Source of the DNA: Akkermansia muciniphila | GTDB taxonomy: Bacteria; Verrucomicrobiota; Verrucomicrobiia; Verrucomicrobiales; V1-33 | Length of the DNA: 64,000 bases | Assembly: GCA_945900785.1 (NCBI GenBank) | Contig: CAMDJM010000013.1 | Span: 20,636 to 84,635 of the forward strand | Direction of reading: 5' to 3' | Shown here: piece by piece, positions 20,754 through 26,168 of the stretch | Layout: each line of letters starts with the position of its first letter | How positions within the stretch are numbered: the first letter of the stretch is position 1 | Translations under genes and position numbers: made by a program | The notes under the pieces: generated by a model | Database searches by the model: none | Told to the model about the DNA's origin: nothing | What the model saw: the letters and a program-made list of their open reading frames with translations, nothing else

Positions 20754-21209
20754 TTACGGGGTGAGGAAGATCAACTTTAAACCATCCGGTTCGAAGCGCC
20801 TGTAGTCGCGGTCGGCGGTGACAAATTCCACCCCTGCGGTAATGGCAAAAGCGGCAAGGTAAGCATCCATCCAGACTTTGGGCGAAGCAGAGGGCAGACC
20901 TGCCGCGCGCTTCCATTCCGCCTCCAAGCCAGCAGGCTCAGCGAGCCAGATGACTTGCGGCAAGGCCAACAAATCCTGCGATTTTATCCAAGCGGCTTCG
21001 TTGGTAATCAGCGTGCTGCCGTAGGTGGTTTGGATGGCGGGTGTGGTCAGCAAACGCAAATAGCTTTGCTGGGTGGCCCGGCAAAAGGCGGCTGGCTGGG
21101 AAGAATCCGCTGCCGAAAAAACGGCAACTGCCTCTGCATGACAGGGATGACGGGCGAACGAAAGCGCCAGCCATACGTTTGTGTCAAATAGGCGGGCCGA
21201 GGCGTTCAA
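20754..21209 (-). CDS. PIN-domain toxin (VapC-type ribonuclease)
   Basis: 151 residues with the acidic PIN-domain residues in expected order: LFDTNVWLAL (Asp9), a mid-helix acidic region, KVWMDAYLAAFAI and the closing FVTADRDYRRF. VapC proteins are Mg-dependent endoribonucleases that cleave tRNA or rRNA and are held inactive by the cognate VapB. The ATG at 21209 lies 26 bp inside the upstream antitoxin-like gene, the usual overlap of toxin-antitoxin pairs, so the two are translated together. Confidence 0.85.
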   Translation of the reverse strand: MNASARLFDTNVWLALSFARHPCHAEAVAVFSAADSSQPAAFCRATQQSYLRLLTTPAIQTTYGSTLITNEAAWIKSQDLLALPQVIWLAEPAGLEAEWKRAAGLPSASPKVWMDAYLAAFAITAGVEFVTADRDYRRFEPDGLKLIFLTP

Positions 21210-21474
21210 GGTCTTCCTGAGTCAAAGTTGTGTGCTCCATGGCGGTCAGTTGTTCCATGCTCATTCGTGCCGCCGGAGCATCCGGTGCACAAGGAAATAG
21301 GGGCAAATCGATGTGTTGCCGACTGGGGGTTGCCAATGCCGCTTTTTCGGGATCCTGTCCGAGGCCACGCCGAAGCAAATCGGCAATGACATCTTTCAAT
21401 TTCCGCCCTTCATTCACGGCTTGGAGTTTGATCTCGCGCACGAGATCATTGGGAAGTTCCAAGGTTGTCTTCAT
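21184..21474 (-). CDS. VapB-type antitoxin with ribbon-helix-helix-like N-terminus
   Basis: 96 residues. The N-terminus MKTTLELPNDLVREIKLQAV resembles a ribbon-helix-helix DNA-binding segment, expected to bind the operon's own promoter. The C-terminal part (MSMEQLTAMEHTTLTQEDLE) would wrap the PIN toxin encoded next. The gene overlaps the toxin by 26 bp and begins 45 bp downstream of the alaS stop on the same strand, so alaS read-through could contribute to its transcription. Confidence 0.78.
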   Translation of the reverse strand: MKTTLELPNDLVREIKLQAVNEGRKLKDVIADLLRRGLGQDPEKAALATPSRQHIDLPLFPCAPDAPAARMSMEQLTAMEHTTLTQEDLERLGPPI

Positions 21475-21519: not shown

Positions 21520-24500
21520 TTATGGAATTGCAAGCCGTTTGGCTTCCGCCAGAGCCGCTTCCAAGCCGCTGACTTCCTTGCCGCCGCCGCGGGCGAAGTC
21601 GGGTTTGCCGCCGCCTTTGCCTCCGACGAGCGGGGCGATGGTTTGGATGATTTTGCCGGCGTGGATTTTAGCTTGGTGGTCTTTGCTGACGGTGGCGATG
21701 AGGGCGACGTTGCCGCCGCCGGTGGTGCCGAGCACGACGATGCCATTGAAGAGCGACTTCAGGGCATCACTGACAGCCATGGCGTAGTCGCCGTCCACGT
21801 CGCCGAGGTTGGCGATGAGGACCGGGCCTTCGGCTTGAGGCAGGAGTTCCTTGGCGCGGCCGGCGGCTTCGCGCTGCTGGGCGGATTTTAACGCCTTTTC
21901 GAGCGACTTGGTTTGCTCGAGGAGGAGGTCGATTTTCTTTTCCAGGTCGGGCAGAGGCGCGCCGATTTTGGTGGCGAGTTGCTTGAGGCGGGTGGCGTCA
22001 GCGGCGCCTTGCTCGTAAGCGGGGAGGCCGGCGATGGCTTCGATGCGGCGGATGCCGGCTCCGGTGGCGGCTTCGCTGAGGATTTTGAAGCTGCCAATCT
22101 GCCCGGTGCGGCGGATGTGGGTGCCGCCGCAGAGTTCCATGCTGTAGCCATCGAGGGCATTCGGGGAGCCGCCGATCTGGACCACGCGCACGGTCTCGCC
22201 GTATTTCTCGCCGAAGGCCTGCATGATTTCCGGACGGGATTTCACGTCCGTGTATTTGACTTCCGACCAGGAAACCGGGGCGTCCTCAACAATGCGTTCG
22301 TTGACGAGTTTTTCCACGTCCGCGACCTGTTGCGGGGTGAGGGCAGCGCTGTTGAAGTCGAAGGTCAGCTTCTCCGGACCGACGTATGAACCCTTCTGGG
22401 TGGCATCCTGGCTAACGACTTCGTGCAGCGCCCAGTGCAGCAGGTGGGTCACGCTGTGGTGGCGGGAAATGGCATCGCGCCGCGCTTCATTGATGCGCAC
22501 GGTGACGGCGGCTCCGGGTGTCAGGGTGACGTCGTCGGAGGCGAGGTAATGCAGGAAAGTGTTGCCGGATTTCTGGGTGTTGGCGATGGACAACACTTCG
22601 GCTCCAGCCAGCAGGGTGCCGGTATCGCCCAGCTGCCCGCCCATCTCCGCATAACAAGGAGTCGCATCCAGAATGACGGCGGTTTTGTCCCCGACGGTGA
22701 CGACTTCGAGGACCTTGGACTCGGTCTCTTCGGCATCGTAGCCGAGGAAAGTGGTGGGTTCCTTGGTTTCGATTTCGGAGAGTTTGATCACTGATTTTTT
22801 CTGGGCGGCGCGGGCGCGCTCGCGCTGCTGATTCATCAAAACCTCAAAACCATCCTTGTCCACCGTCAGGCCACGCTCGCGGGCCATCAATTCCGTCAGG
22901 TCCAACGGAAAGCCCTGTTCATCATACAAGCGGAACGCAAACGCCCCGGAAATCTGCCCGCCGCAGGCGGCAGCCGAAACGGGGAGAACAGGCGTCCCGC
23001 CTGTCCCGCCGGGTGTCCCACCCGGTGCCGGAGCATCGGCTTTTTCCAGAGCCCTTGTATTTTCCAAAACCCCAGCCTGCTCCTGCGGCACCCGCACATT
23101 CACCGCCTCGGTCCAAACAAACTCATAATCCTCGCCCTCCTTCACCAGCCCATCCTCCCATGGATTGCGGCAGACATAATGGAATTTTTCCTCCAGATCG
23201 GACTGCGACCTCATGAACCTATCAAAAGTTTCCTCCTGCCAGATGGAACGGCCTTTGACCTCATCAAGTTTATTGATGGATTTGGCCGTAAAGGATTTGA
23301 TGGAATGCATCAGATCTGCCAAGGACCAAAACACCGGATTCCCGGAACCATCGTTTTCTTTTGGCCATGGTTGGATCAGGACATGAACATGGTCCGGCAT
23401 GACGCAGGCCGCGAAAAGTTCGTAGCGGTCGCGGTGGAAATGCGTGAGGGTATCCAACGTGATTTGGCGGGCGGCGGGAGTGAGTTGAAAATGGTCGCGG
23501 GTTTTGAATATGAGATGGTAAACGGCCCAGGGTTTCTCGAAGTGGGGTAGGTTCCGGCGGGAGTAGGTGGTGCCGGGGGATTTGGTGGCAGAGGCGGGTG
23601 GGGCCGATTCTTTGAGTAAAGCCGATGCTCCGGCACCGGGTGGGACACCCGGCGTGACAGGCGGGACGCCTGTTCTCCCCGTTGCATTCGCCTCGCGAAT
23701 TCCGGTTAGGGCGTTCGCTTCGCTCTCGAAGAGTTGGATGCCTTTGTCGAGGGTGCGGTTAAACGCCTCCTCCTCGGTTTTGAGGGTTTGTTTGATGAAC
23801 TCCTTGCGGGCGCGGAGTTCGGGGAAGACTTCTCCCATGTGTGACGCGAGGGTGTCGGCGAGTTTGTAGAAAAAGGGCTCGGTAAAGCCGAGGGTGCGGC
23901 CATATTTGACGGCGCGGCGGAGGATGCGGCGCAGGACGTAGTTGCGGTCGTTGTTGCCGGGGGTGATGCCATCCGCGATGGAGAAACTGAGGGTGCGGAT
24001 GTGGTCGGCGATGACGCGGAAGGCGATGTCGATTTTCTCCTGCCCGGTTTCGCCGGTGGTGCCGGCGGCGGGGAGGGTGCTGAGGTATTTTTTCGGCGCG
24101 CCGGTTTGTTCGGTTAGCTTTTCAATCTCCGCGAAGAGCGGGCGGAAGACGTCGGTGTCGTAGTTCGAAATTTTGTTGGAGTGCTCGAAGGTAGTGAAAT
24201 TCTGGGTGCCGTGGATGATGGAGACGACGCGCTCGAAACCCATGCCGGTATCGACGTGCTGGGCGGGGAGGGGGACGAAGCTGCCGTCGGGGTTGGCGTT
24301 GTATTGGATGAAGACGTTGTTCCAGATTTCGATGCAGCGGGCGTCGGGACCGTTGACGAGCAGGGCGCCTTCCTTCTGGCGCTCGATGCTGGTGCGCACG
24401 TCGCCAGGGGTGAGGTCGACGTGGATCTCGGTGCAGGGGCCGCAGGGGCCGGTTTCGCCCATCATCCAGAAGTTGTCTTTCTTGTTCCCGTTGACGATGT

Positions 24501-24993
24501 GGATGTCAGGATCGAGTCCCGCACTGCGGAATTTTTCGGCCCAAAGATCCCAGGCTTCCTGGTCGCGGTCGGCGGGGTCGCCGAGGGATTTGTCCGGCTG
24601 GTAGATGGTGGCGTAGACGCGCTCAGCGGGGAATTTCCAGACGTCGATGATGAGTTCCCAGGACCAGGCGATGGCTTCCTTTTTGAAGTAGTCGCCGAAG
24701 GACCAGTTGCCCAGCATTTCGAAGAACGTGTGGTGATAGGTATCGAGGCCGACATCGTCCAGATCGTTGTGTTTACCGCCGGCGCGGATGCACTTTTGGG
24801 TATCGGCAGCGCGGCCGGGGTGGTAGGGGCACTCGATCTGGCCGAGGAAGATCGGGACAAATTGGTTCATCCCCGCGTTGGTGAAAAGCAAGTTCGGGCT
24901 GTCCGGCATCAGGCTGGCGGAAGGCACGATGGTGTGCTTTTTCGAGTGGAAGAAATCGAGGAAAGACTGGCGGATCTGGGCGGCGGAGAGCAT
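21520..24993 (-). CDS. alaS: Alanyl-tRNA synthetase with an in-frame RAYT transposase insertion
   Basis: 1157 residues from the ATG at 24993 (MLSAAQIRQSFLDFFHSKKH); bacterial AlaRS is usually 870-950. The catalytic domain (FTNAGMNQF, DTYHHTFFEMLGNWSFGDYF, TGPCGPCTEIHVD) comes first. The editing domain follows with the zinc set HHSVTHLLH and LCGGTHIRRTG, then a coiled coil and the C-Ala domain ending in GGKGGGKPDFARGGG. Between TGIREANATG (about residue 436) and the conserved AFAFRLYDEQGFPLDLTELM (from about 684), roughly 240 extra residues form a complete Y1/RAYT transposase with HUH motif MPDHVHVL (His535, His537) and candidate nucleophile Tyr606 in FHYVCRNPWEDG. No stop or frameshift interrupts the fusion. 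All AlaRS landmarks persist on both sides, so synthetase activity may survive with the insert as a looped-out domain. Confidence 0.9.
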   Translation of the reverse strand: MLSAAQIRQSFLDFFHSKKHTIVPSASLMPDSPNLLFTNAGMNQFVPIFLGQIECPYHPGRAADTQKCIRAGGKHNDLDDVGLDTYHHTFFEMLGNWSFGDYFKKEAIAWSWELIIDVWKFPAERVYATIYQPDKSLGDPADRDQEAWDLWAEKFRSAGLDPDIHIVNGNKKDNFWMMGETGPCGPCTEIHVDLTPGDVRTSIERQKEGALLVNGPDARCIEIWNNVFIQYNANPDGSFVPLPAQHVDTGMGFERVVSIIHGTQNFTTFEHSNKISNYDTDVFRPLFAEIEKLTEQTGAPKKYLSTLPAAGTTGETGQEKIDIAFRVIADHIRTLSFSIADGITPGNNDRNYVLRRILRRAVKYGRTLGFTEPFFYKLADTLASHMGEVFPELRARKEFIKQTLKTEEEAFNRTLDKGIQLFESEANALTGIREANATGRTGVPPVTPGVPPGAGASALLKESAPPASATKSPGTTYSRRNLPHFEKPWAVYHLIFKTRDHFQLTPAARQITLDTLTHFHRDRYELFAACVMPDHVHVLIQPWPKENDGSGNPVFWSLADLMHSIKSFTAKSINKLDEVKGRSIWQEETFDRFMRSQSDLEEKFHYVCRNPWEDGLVKEGEDYEFVWTEAVNVRVPQEQAGVLENTRALEKADAPAPGGTPGGTGGTPVLPVSAAACGGQISGAFAFRLYDEQGFPLDLTELMARERGLTVDKDGFEVLMNQQRERARAAQKKSVIKLSEIETKEPTTFLGYDAEETESKVLEVVTVGDKTAVILDATPCYAEMGGQLGDTGTLLAGAEVLSIANTQKSGNTFLHYLASDDVTLTPGAAVTVRINEARRDAISRHHSVTHLLHWALHEVVSQDATQKGSYVGPEKLTFDFNSAALTPQQVADVEKLVNERIVEDAPVSWSEVKYTDVKSRPEIMQAFGEKYGETVRVVQIGGSPNALDGYSMELCGGTHIRRTGQIGSFKILSEAATGAGIRRIEAIAGLPAYEQGAADATRLKQLATKIGAPLPDLEKKIDLLLEQTKSLEKALKSAQQREAAGRAKELLPQAEGPVLIANLGDVDGDYAMAVSDALKSLFNGIVVLGTTGGGNVALIATVSKDHQAKIHAGKIIQTIAPLVGGKGGGKPDFARGGGKEVSGLEAALAEAKRLAIP
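22981..23043 (+). repeat. REP-like inverted repeat, left copy (two TCC-loop hairpins)
   Basis: Contains two adjacent hairpins, ACAGGCG-TCC-CGCCTGT and CCGGGTG-TCC-CACCCGG, each with a 7-bp stem and a 3-base loop. The whole block is the inverse of 23618-23680. In the alaS frame it encodes a Pro/Gly-rich linker (APAPGGTPGGTGGTPVLPV). Confidence 0.88.
23618..23680 (-). repeat. REP-like inverted repeat, right copy
   Basis: The inverse of 22981-23043 with 62 of 63 bases identical; the one difference lies between the two hairpins. In the alaS frame it encodes GRTGVPPVTPGVPPGAGASA. Confidence 0.88.
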
Positions 24994-25133
24994 CGAAATT
25001 TTGAAGGATGAATGAGGAATGAGGAAAGGAGGACCGGCCGTTGCTGCTGGCCAGTGGGCCGGGGGGTGAAAATGGGGGCGTGGATTTCTAGAATGGAGAC
25101 GGGGCGTAGGAAACCACGGATTTTGGGTGACGA

Positions 25134-26168
25134 TCACGCCAAGGCCTCAAGAACGTGCTCTGCTTCGTTTCCGGCGGCGGGGCCATGGAATTCCGCATCC
25201 TTGGCCAGCCAGGCAGCGGCGATATCCTCCAACTCGGTGAGGCTCTGGATGTGGCAGAAGCGTTGACGCAGGGCACGGCCGCCAGGCAGGCCTTTGCTGT
25301 AGGCCATGAGCCGGGAGCGCAGGGACTGCATCAGGAAGCGCTCGCCGTCAAAGCGGCCGGTTTCCATGGCAAGCCGGGCGTGGCGGAGCATGAAGGCCCA
25401 GCGTTCCTCTGCTTCCACCGGGGCGGGCTGGGTGCCAGTTTCGAGGTAATGGCGGGCCTCCCGGAAGACCCACGGGTAACCCATGGCGGCGCGGCCGATC
25501 ATCAGTCCGCTGACTTGGGTGGTCTGGCACCGGTGCTCGATGTCACGGCCACTGGCAAGGTCACCATTGCCTATGATCGGGAGCCGGCTGGTGGCGGCGC
25601 ATTCAGCGATGACGTCCCAATTCGCCTGGCCGGTGTAGCCCTGGGCGCGGGTGCGGCCGTGGATGGTGACGGCGGCGATGCCGCAGTCCTCCAGGAGCCG
25701 GCAGACGTGCGGGGCGTTGATGCTTTGCTCATCCCATCCGATCCGGATTTTGGCCGTGACGGGGATGGGCACGGCCTGGGCCACGGCAGTGGCGACGGCG
25801 GTGAGCAGCGGGCAGTCTTTCAGGAGCGAGGAGCCGCCGTTTTTGGCGACCACTTTATTGACGGGGCAACCGAAGTTCAGATCGATGAAATCCGGGGCCT
25901 TCCAATCCATGACCTTGCGGGCGGCTTCGGCCATGTTTTCGGGGTGGGCTCCAAAGAGCTGCACGCCTACGGGGCGTTGGGTTTCCTCAAAATCGGTGTA
26001 GTGCCGCGTGCGGTCATCCCGCCGGATGATGCCTTCGCTGCTGACAAATTCCGTAACCATGACTTCCGCGCCCAGTTCCTTGCAAAGACGGCGGAAAACC
26101 GCGTCCGTGACCCCGGCCATGGGGGCGAGGTAAAGAGGAGGTCGGGAAACTTGAAGCCAGGGAAGCAT
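25134..26168 (-). CDS. dus: tRNA-dihydrouridine synthase (DusB-like)
   Basis: 344 residues from the ATG at 26168; a GTG at 26183 would add five. This FMN enzyme reduces uridines in the tRNA D-loop with NADPH. Seen in order: LYLAPMAGVTDAVFRRLCKE, the DLNFGCPVNKVVAKNGGSSL motif with its catalytic cysteine, KIRIGWDE, VTIHGRTRAQGYTG and IIGNGDLASG, then GLMIGRAAMGYPWVFRE. The length fits DusB. The stop is about 140 bp before the alaS start on the same strand, so dus and alaS may share a transcript. Confidence 0.93.
   Translation of the reverse strand: MLPWLQVSRPPLYLAPMAGVTDAVFRRLCKELGAEVMVTEFVSSEGIIRRDDRTRHYTDFEETQRPVGVQLFGAHPENMAEAARKVMDWKAPDFIDLNFGCPVNKVVAKNGGSSLLKDCPLLTAVATAVAQAVPIPVTAKIRIGWDEQSINAPHVCRLLEDCGIAAVTIHGRTRAQGYTGQANWDVIAECAATSRLPIIGNGDLASGRDIEHRCQTTQVSGLMIGRAAMGYPWVFREARHYLETGTQPAPVEAEERWAFMLRHARLAMETGRFDGERFLMQSLRSRLMAYSKGLPGGRALRQRFCHIQSLTELEDIAAAWLAKDAEFHGPAAGNEAEHVLEALA

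What the first reader, a model, noticed from the sequence alone, without database searches (positions are those of the whole stretch)
22981..23680. A complete RAYT transposase is embedded in frame inside alaS
The alaS frame runs 1157 codons without a stop. Between the catalytic half and the editing half it contains a full Y1/RAYT domain with HUH motif HVHVL and candidate Tyr606. The insert sits in a loop just before the conserved AFRLYD-GFP segment. No start codon precedes the transposase's first conserved strand, so it can apparently be made only as a fusion with an essential housekeeping enzyme. Possible meanings: a selfish element that escapes loss by in-frame residence, a domesticated nuclease tethered to AlaRS, or a recent neutral insertion tolerated in a loop.
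Basis: partly seen in the sequence, partly recalled or inferred. Interest (0 to 1): 0.93.

Follow-up and report, generated by a model that had tools for sequence, protein, structure and literature searches.

The report
Transposon riding in-frame inside essential genes
A complete REP-type transposase gene with its inverted-repeat ends lies in frame inside the only alanyl-tRNA synthetase gene found in this bacterium, and similar elements lie in frame in more than a dozen other kinds of enzyme gene in other bacteria, where they likely persist as selfish passengers because losing the host gene would be lethal.

Summary
Window 22978-23683 is a REP-RAYT element: an HUH/Y1 transposase domain between 66-nt inverted repeats, 98% complementary, read without a stop as part of a 1157-aa AlaRS, the genome's only alaS hit. 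The same genome has RAYTs in frame in leuS and carB. 1024 proteins of about 660-2100 aa match this RAYT and 638 match the leuS one (120 of each examined). Hosts include AlaRS, LeuRS, ThrRS, ValRS, RecG, PriA, HsdR, MetH, CarB and IspG. In 387 genomes of the phylum, own included, 19 of 26 strong matches lie in host frames. In-gene copies keep the HUH histidines and tyrosine (206 and 203 of 208); dN/dS is mostly 0.05-0.2. Three congeners have an empty alaS site. Best reading: a selfish element whose main niche is in-frame residence in essential enzymes, like an intein without splicing. Movement, translation of the chimera and both activities are inferred; domestication is the main rival. The paper listings and passages that I saw report short in-frame REPs but no in-frame whole transposase.

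The parts
21520..24993 (-). alaS with in-frame insert, 1157 aa (frame open from GTG 25137)
   Evidence: P0003
22978..23683 (-). whole REP-RAYT element, repeat to repeat, 706 nt; the exact insertion point is not resolved
   Evidence: AlaRS of congeners G001, G003 and G004 lack it
23618..23683 (-). left terminal inverted repeat (REP, GGAG-tagged hairpin GGAGAACAGGCGTCCCGCCTGT), read in frame as TGRTGVPPVTPGVPPGAGASA
22978..23043 (-). right terminal inverted repeat, read in frame as KADAPAPGGTPGGTGGTPVLPV
23071..23568 (-). RAYT (HUH/Y1) domain, residues 476-641 of the 1157-aa protein
   Evidence: only PDB match of the RAYT profile: TnpArep 4er8, E 5.8e-8
23377..23391 (-). HUH motif HVHVL (535-539)
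23176..23178 (-). predicted catalytic tyrosine (606) in YVCRNP

Best explanation
The insert is a complete REP-RAYT element, a Y1 (HUH) transposase domain between inverted REP repeats, lying in frame and stop-free in the only alaS found in this genome, where it likely lives as a selfish in-frame resident: it would have entered as single-stranded DNA at a variable loop and is predicted to be translated as an extra AlaRS domain that is not spliced out. Shown: element ends, open frame, intact HUH and Tyr, empty sites in congeners, the same arrangement in alaS, leuS and carB of one genome and in many other host genes, low dN/dS in related in-gene copies, and an in-frame RAYT-less repeat pair in the same leuS loop of a congener. 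Inferred: that the RAYT nicks REP hairpins and moves the element, that the chimera is made and still charges tRNA, that the REP-encoded stretches serve as linkers, and that essentiality of the host gene protects the element from loss. Out-of-frame arrivals in such genes would kill the cell, so only in-frame ones would be seen.
For: Ends: 66-nt repeats, 65 of 66 complementary. Of 73 in-gene copies examined, 72 have a terminal inverted repeat scoring above the best of 6 letter shuffles. A GGAG- or GTAG-tagged hairpin is in the left end of 47 of 69, against 7 of 1380 shuffles. Recurrence: own leuS and carB. 1024 proteins of about 660-2100 aa match this RAYT, against 271 of about 100-320 aa with a slightly longer query. 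In the 80 loci kept by the genome scan, 72 lie in a recognisable host frame, 59 with at least 100 aa on both sides. In 387 genomes, own included, 19 of 26 strong matches lie in host frames, including all 8 that score 218 bits or more. Activity kept: HUH histidines 206 and 206 of 208, tyrosine 203 of 208 in-gene domains. Own carB RAYT against congener G002: dS 0.75, dN 0.056; the five other unsaturated pairs 0.13-0.22. Turnover: RAYT in leuS of G000, G011 and G041 of 56 relatives, plus a contig-end piece in G008 whose assembly also holds an empty leuS piece; in carB of 3 of 55. The empty G008 piece and occupied G011 leuS are 96-97% identical on both sides of the insert. Congener G002 has a RAYT-less GTAG repeat pair in the same leuS loop. 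At leuS the own and G011 RAYTs are far more diverged (dN 0.54) than the host (0.11-0.15). Several hosts carry two RAYTs.
Against: No transposition, expression or enzyme activity was tested. At AlaRS site B and in RecG the RAYT co-diverges with its host (Mantel r 0.56 and 0.51, 0 of 2000 permutations each), so movement is rare and domestication is possible. Of 28 other loci of this REP examined in the genome, most are outside long frames. This copy is below NCBIfam's cut-off. The repeat being open in all six frames is not special (299 of 4000 shuffles). G011's leuS element has three tandem tagged repeats on the left and no clear inverted partner. One leuS pair gives a higher ratio, 0.41. Exact target sites and target-site changes were not resolved.
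Confidence: 0.7

Rival explanations
1. Domesticated domain: the RAYT is kept because it gives the host enzyme or cell a benefit, for example a single-strand nuclease tethered to helicases, restriction and tRNA enzymes.
For: Low dN/dS and conserved catalytic residues; co-divergence with the host at AlaRS-B and RecG; clustering by host on a quick RAYT tree, 30 host changes over 248 rows, stand-alone counted as one label; many hosts handle nucleic acids.
Against: Some twenty unrelated hosts including MetH, CarB and IspG; patchy presence with empty congeners; inverted-repeat ends retained; two RAYTs in one protein; no host/RAYT correlation at AlaRS site A (r 0.08).
Confidence: 0.2
2. Neutral, recent insertion tolerated in a loop, with no continuing activity.
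For: Site B is a loop of variable length in AlaRS; it is empty in the three congeners examined.
Against: Shared by three related AlaRS proteins with 85-89% RAYT identity; catalytic residues kept in almost all in-gene copies; dN/dS far below 1 in related copies. dN/dS was not computed for this very copy.
Confidence: 0.05
3. Intein-like or intron-like removal: the insert is taken out of the protein or RNA.
For: Position in conserved enzymes resembles inteins.
Against: No HINT/intein domain was reported in the protein; no intron family reached threshold in the window; the host frame runs through both repeats.
Confidence: 0.03
4. Assembly artefact or misread frame.
For: The genome is a 172-contig assembly, 86% complete. 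G008's assembly holds both an occupied and an empty leuS piece, so mixed strains or contamination occur in some of the assemblies compared.
Against: Orthologues in other assemblies (P0013, P0015); the same arrangement in proteins that sources name Haloferula sargassicola LeuRS and Chlorobium phaeobacteroides HsdR, and in AlaRS on a RefSeq Ereboglobus contig, cut at the contig end (L187).
Confidence: 0.02

Closest known systems
REPtron / RAYT (TnpAREP) systems
   Same: HUH/Y1 transposase of the REP family flanked by inverted, tagged REP hairpins; the only PDB match of the RAYT profile is TnpArep
   Different: RAYTs are described as single-copy, vertically inherited genes (PMC8049555, passage); here the whole element is a domain of a housekeeping enzyme, and the tag is mostly GGAG instead of GTAG
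TIRtrons / TIRYTs (PMC3733652, passages)
   Same: RAYT-like gene between long terminal inverted repeats
   Different: The passages that I read do not describe in-frame residence of the transposase in a host enzyme
Intragenic REPs of Opitutus terrae and Rickettsia RPEs (PMC3733652, passages)
   Same: Palindromic elements translated in frame inside host proteins, in Verrucomicrobia too
   Different: Those are short palindromes, singly or in clusters up to 82 codons, without a transposase; here the transposase travels inside the frame
Inteins (recalled, no call)
   Same: Mobile elements in frame in conserved enzymes, often at the same site in different species
   Different: No splicing domain; the insert is predicted to stay in the mature enzyme

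Membership tests
RAYT (REP-associated tyrosine transposase) | HUH motif and single catalytic tyrosine of the Y1 family | tested here: met
RAYT (REP-associated tyrosine transposase) | score over the curated NF047646 model | tested here: inconclusive
   70 bits against a cut-off of 80, full model length
RAYT (REP-associated tyrosine transposase) | flanked by inverted REP sequences that also occur elsewhere in the genome | tested here: met
   66-nt inverted repeats; 35 matches in the genome, the element's own two included, many as inverted pairs
RAYT (REP-associated tyrosine transposase) | GTAG tetranucleotide 5' of the hairpin | tested here: inconclusive
   GGAG here; in 69 left ends GGAG 40, GTAG 7, neither found 22
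RAYT (REP-associated tyrosine transposase) | cleaves its REP as single strand | not testable with these tools
   needs an in vitro assay; shown for other TnpAREP (PMC8266576, passages)
Intein | HINT self-splicing domain | tested here: not met
   no such domain listed
IS200/IS605 insertion sequence | passes the curated IS200 transposase model NF033573 | tested here: not met
   20 bits against a cut-off of 55; IS-type ends were not tested
Functional alanyl-tRNA synthetase | catalytic, editing and DHHA1 domains in one frame | tested here: met
   (TIGR00344, 806 bits over both stretches); activity not tested

The most novel reading that the evidence does not exclude
Bacteria host a class of 'protein-domain transposons': REP-RAYT elements whose main niche, for at least two RAYT subfamilies and in several phyla, is permanent in-frame residence inside essential or DNA-handling enzymes, like inteins that never splice, with REP ends that double as peptide linkers and host essentiality as the defence against loss.
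Probability: 0.55. Interest if true: 0.93.

Novelty: new variant of a known kind. Interest (0 to 1): 0.88.

Why it matters
It would show a way for a transposon to persist without splicing or toxin-antitoxin addiction: become a domain of an enzyme that the host cannot lose. It could explain where in-frame REP and RPE peptides come from, supply hundreds of natural domain-insertion experiments that show which loops of AlaRS, LeuRS, RecG, CarB and MetH tolerate a domain of about 165 residues, and warn annotators that such 'fusions' are real; one survey set aside unexpectedly long members as fusions or annotation errors (PMC6006769, passage). It also makes the selfish-versus-domesticated question about RAYTs directly testable.

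Tried and rejected
Rejected: that a REP open in all six frames is a special adaptation (299 of 4000 letter shuffles are also open). That the used frame is strongly linker-like: it had the fewest order-promoting residues in 39 of 69 copies, only a mild excess. That all in-gene copies lack a start codon. That REPs of this family in the own genome are mainly intragenic: of 28 loci examined most are not in long frames. L130's long frame has no host domain and was dropped as chance. L132 and L133 are one-sided fusions, and L131 starts at a contig end. L125 (TPR protein) was judged by reading only. No structure model was obtained. dN/dS for the alaS copy itself was not computed, because the DNA of P0013 and P0015 was not fetched. 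An earlier count said 37 AlaRS among the 120 listed proteins; the recount is 36.

Full report
1. Observation. The minus-strand ORF 21520-25137 is open for 1205 codons; from the likely ATG it is the 1157-aa database protein P0003. One frame holds the AlaRS catalytic part, a Y1 transposase domain, and the AlaRS editing and DHHA1 domains. HVHVL is at 535 and Tyr606 in YVCRNP, as reported. No ATG/GTG/TTG lies in frame between the left repeat and the first conserved strand. The genome (5.08 Mb, 172 contigs, 86% complete) shows no second alaS.

2. It is not alone in this genome. A search with the RAYT found five places, and the NF047646 family seven. Two more than alaS lie in frame in housekeeping genes: leuS (contig 12, 1119-aa frame) and carB (contig 20, 1356-aa frame). 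Each again has inverted-repeat ends: 29 of 29 nt in leuS, 33 of 35 in carB. Each is the only copy of its gene found. The other places are in short frames without an assigned host.

3. How general: proteins. Search with the alaS RAYT, candidates limited to about 660-2100 aa: 1024 proteins (1222 candidates). The 120 listed are 75 RecG, 36 AlaRS (this one included), 6 MetH, 1 ThrRS, 1 pyruvate-formate-lyase-like and 1 DNA methylase (hosts by motif, Pfam and reading). A slightly longer query against proteins of about 100-320 aa gave 271 (294 candidates), some of them with host domains, so fragments of host genes. With the leuS RAYT: 638 proteins (1239 candidates). The 120 listed, counted by eye from the listing, are 55 HsdR, 46 LeuRS, 7 DinG/Rad3-like helicases, 5 Eco57I-type methylases, 2 MetH, 1 IspG, 1 AlaRS and 3 others. 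Of these 120, 115 have at least 100 aa on both sides of the RAYT; of 125 domains all have an HUH motif and 120 also the Tyr motif.

4. How general: genomes. RAYT is in a recognisable host frame in 72 of 80: AlaRS 30, RecG 22, MetH 5, ThrRS 5, CarB 2, PriA 2, IleRS 1, RdgB-like 1 and methylase-like 4; 8 have no host (hosts by motif and reading). In 59 of 80 there are at least 100 aa on each side; the other 13 host frames are short on one side, many of them at a contig end, though L162, L212 and L213 are not. By record title most of the 80 are Verrucomicrobiota; in-gene cases also come from Planctomycetota (L211, L212), Chloroflexi (L215) and a betaproteobacterium (L217).

A sample of 387 genomes drawn evenly from the phylum, own genome included, gave 26 matches at E<=1e-25 in 22 genomes (at most 9 candidates per genome were scored, so this is a lower bound). 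Nineteen are in frames of 594 aa or more, and in all 19 the frame belongs to a host: AlaRS, RecG, LeuRS, ValRS, IspG, MetH, HsdR and others, by motif and reading. In 18 the host lies on both sides; L234 is cut by a contig end 55 aa upstream. The eight matches of 218 bits or more, the alaS-type subfamily, are all among them. Of 19 frames of at least 500 aa listed, I fetched the 17 not in the own genome: 13 have a host on both sides, 1 is cut by a contig end, 2 are one-sided, 1 has no host.

5. Element anatomy. Of 73 in-gene copies, 72 have terminal inverted repeats scoring above the best of six letter shuffles; 69 by a clear margin. The left end carries a GGAG (40) or GTAG (7) tag before a hairpin in 47 of 69, against 7 of 1380 shuffles. 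TnpAREP enzymes recognise a GTAG tag and hairpin and cut single-stranded REPs at CT (PMC8266576, passages); that GGAG works alike is inference. The only solved relative of the RAYT profile is TnpArep, 4er8. Short relatives such as P0129 and P0160 read through REP-like peptides at both ends; 84 of 116 show such a peptide before the core by a loose pattern.

6. Selection and history. Among 208 in-gene domains the two HUH histidines are present in 206 and 206 and the tyrosine in 203; among 123 short proteins in 122, 117 and 120 (overlap between the protein and genome sets was not removed). dN/dS of in-gene RAYTs: 57 pairs computed, many saturated at silent sites; the five unsaturated pairs with differences (dS below 1.1, four AlaRS loci) give 0.13-0.22. 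The own carB RAYT against congener G002: dS 0.75, dN 0.056, ratio 0.07; against G006 0.22; own leuS against G011 0.41. RAYT distances follow host distances at AlaRS site B (n 46, r 0.56) and RecG (n 90, r 0.51), 0 of 2000 permutations reaching either, but not at AlaRS site A (n 22, r 0.08, 366 of 2000). A quick tree of 248 domains needs 39 changes of host and site label, 30 of host label, stand-alone counted as a label (95 of 241 inner branches are open). So residence is long, with occasional moves.

7. Empty and half-empty sites. Congeners G001, G003 and G004 have a short loop where this alaS has the element; G002 gave no alaS. P0013 and P0015 share it. leuS carries a RAYT in G000, G011 and G041 of 56 genomes with leuS; G008 has an occupied piece at a contig end and an empty piece on another contig, so strains are mixed there or the assembly is contaminated. 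That empty piece and occupied G011 leuS are 95.7% and 96.9% identical in DNA on the two sides; about 35 nt of loop stand against about 800 nt, and G011's element has three tandem tagged repeats on its left and no clear partner on the right. carB carries a RAYT in G000, G002 and G006 of 55. In all 26 listed LeuRS with both flanking motifs the RAYT begins 37-62 aa after one and ends 25-38 aa before the other. At that loop the own and G011 RAYTs differ far more than the hosts (dN 0.54 against 0.11-0.15), which suggests separate arrivals or replacement. G002's leuS loop holds a RAYT-less pair of GTAG-tagged arms of 34 nt, in frame. Several AlaRS carry RAYTs at two sites, and some have a RAYT-less repeat-pair peptide at a third site (read by eye).

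8. Mechanism. Inferred: RAYT nicks REP hairpins in single-stranded DNA and the element joins at a new site; insertions that break an essential gene die, while rare in-frame ones at tolerant loops survive and then cannot be lost by deletion of the gene; loss is still possible, as the patchy pattern suggests. Domestication (about 0.2) remains: conserved catalysis and co-divergence are expected under it too, and many hosts handle nucleic acids.

9. Literature. I ran ten searches of the open-paper library and saw the listed rows only, at most 20 each, of which none is a report of a whole RAYT in frame in a host gene; several searches matched more papers than were listed. PMC3733652 (passages) reports short in-frame REPs, most GTAG ones in Opitutus terrae, recalls Rickettsia RPEs, and describes TIRtrons. 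PMC6006769 (passages) discarded unexpectedly long family members as fusions or annotation errors. PMC8049555 (passages) calls RAYTs single-copy, vertically inherited, domesticated. Subscription papers, preprints and supplements were not searched, so novelty is relative to these listings. Automatic annotations already print names such as 'alanyl-tRNA synthetase/REP element-mobilizing transposase RayT'.

Noticed in passing
L072 (G006 alaS), loop before AFRLYDEQGFP: A short in-frame stretch IPHYEKPHDEMEARTPAS resembles the start of a RAYT core: possibly a relic of a decayed insertion.
   Followed up: partly
L219 (G002 leuS): RAYT-less, GTAG-tagged inverted repeat pair in frame at the loop where the own leuS has its RAYT.
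   Followed up: yes
L231 and L131 (both G008), L122 (G011): One assembly holds an empty and an occupied leuS piece; the empty one is 96-97% identical to occupied G011 leuS on both sides of the insert: possible polymorphism or contamination.
   Followed up: partly
P0003, P0013, P0015: Incongruent divergence: P0015's AlaRS is 97% identical to ours but its RAYT only 85%, while P0013's AlaRS is 92-94% and its RAYT 89%; possible replacement or conversion of the element.
   Followed up: partly
L099, L101, L102, L103, L105 (alaS of relatives): The same AlaRS loop (site B) carries other inserts of some 50-120 aa without a RAYT in several relatives; nature unknown.
   Followed up: no
P0009, P0005, P0262, P0242: Single proteins with two RAYTs each (AlaRS sites B and C; MetH; IspG; planctomycete AlaRS).
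   Followed up: partly
host lists: Many hosts are helicases, restriction or methylase enzymes and tRNA synthetases; whether tethering to DNA-handling enzymes helps the RAYT reach single strands is untested.
   Followed up: no
window 20754-21474 (-): Two small overlapping ORFs downstream of alaS look by eye like a PIN-domain toxin and its antitoxin (VapBC-like); not tested.
   Followed up: no
own genome, 35 matches to the 66-nt repeat: Most of the 28 other loci examined lie outside long frames; many of the matches form inverted pairs about 50 bp apart.
   Followed up: partly
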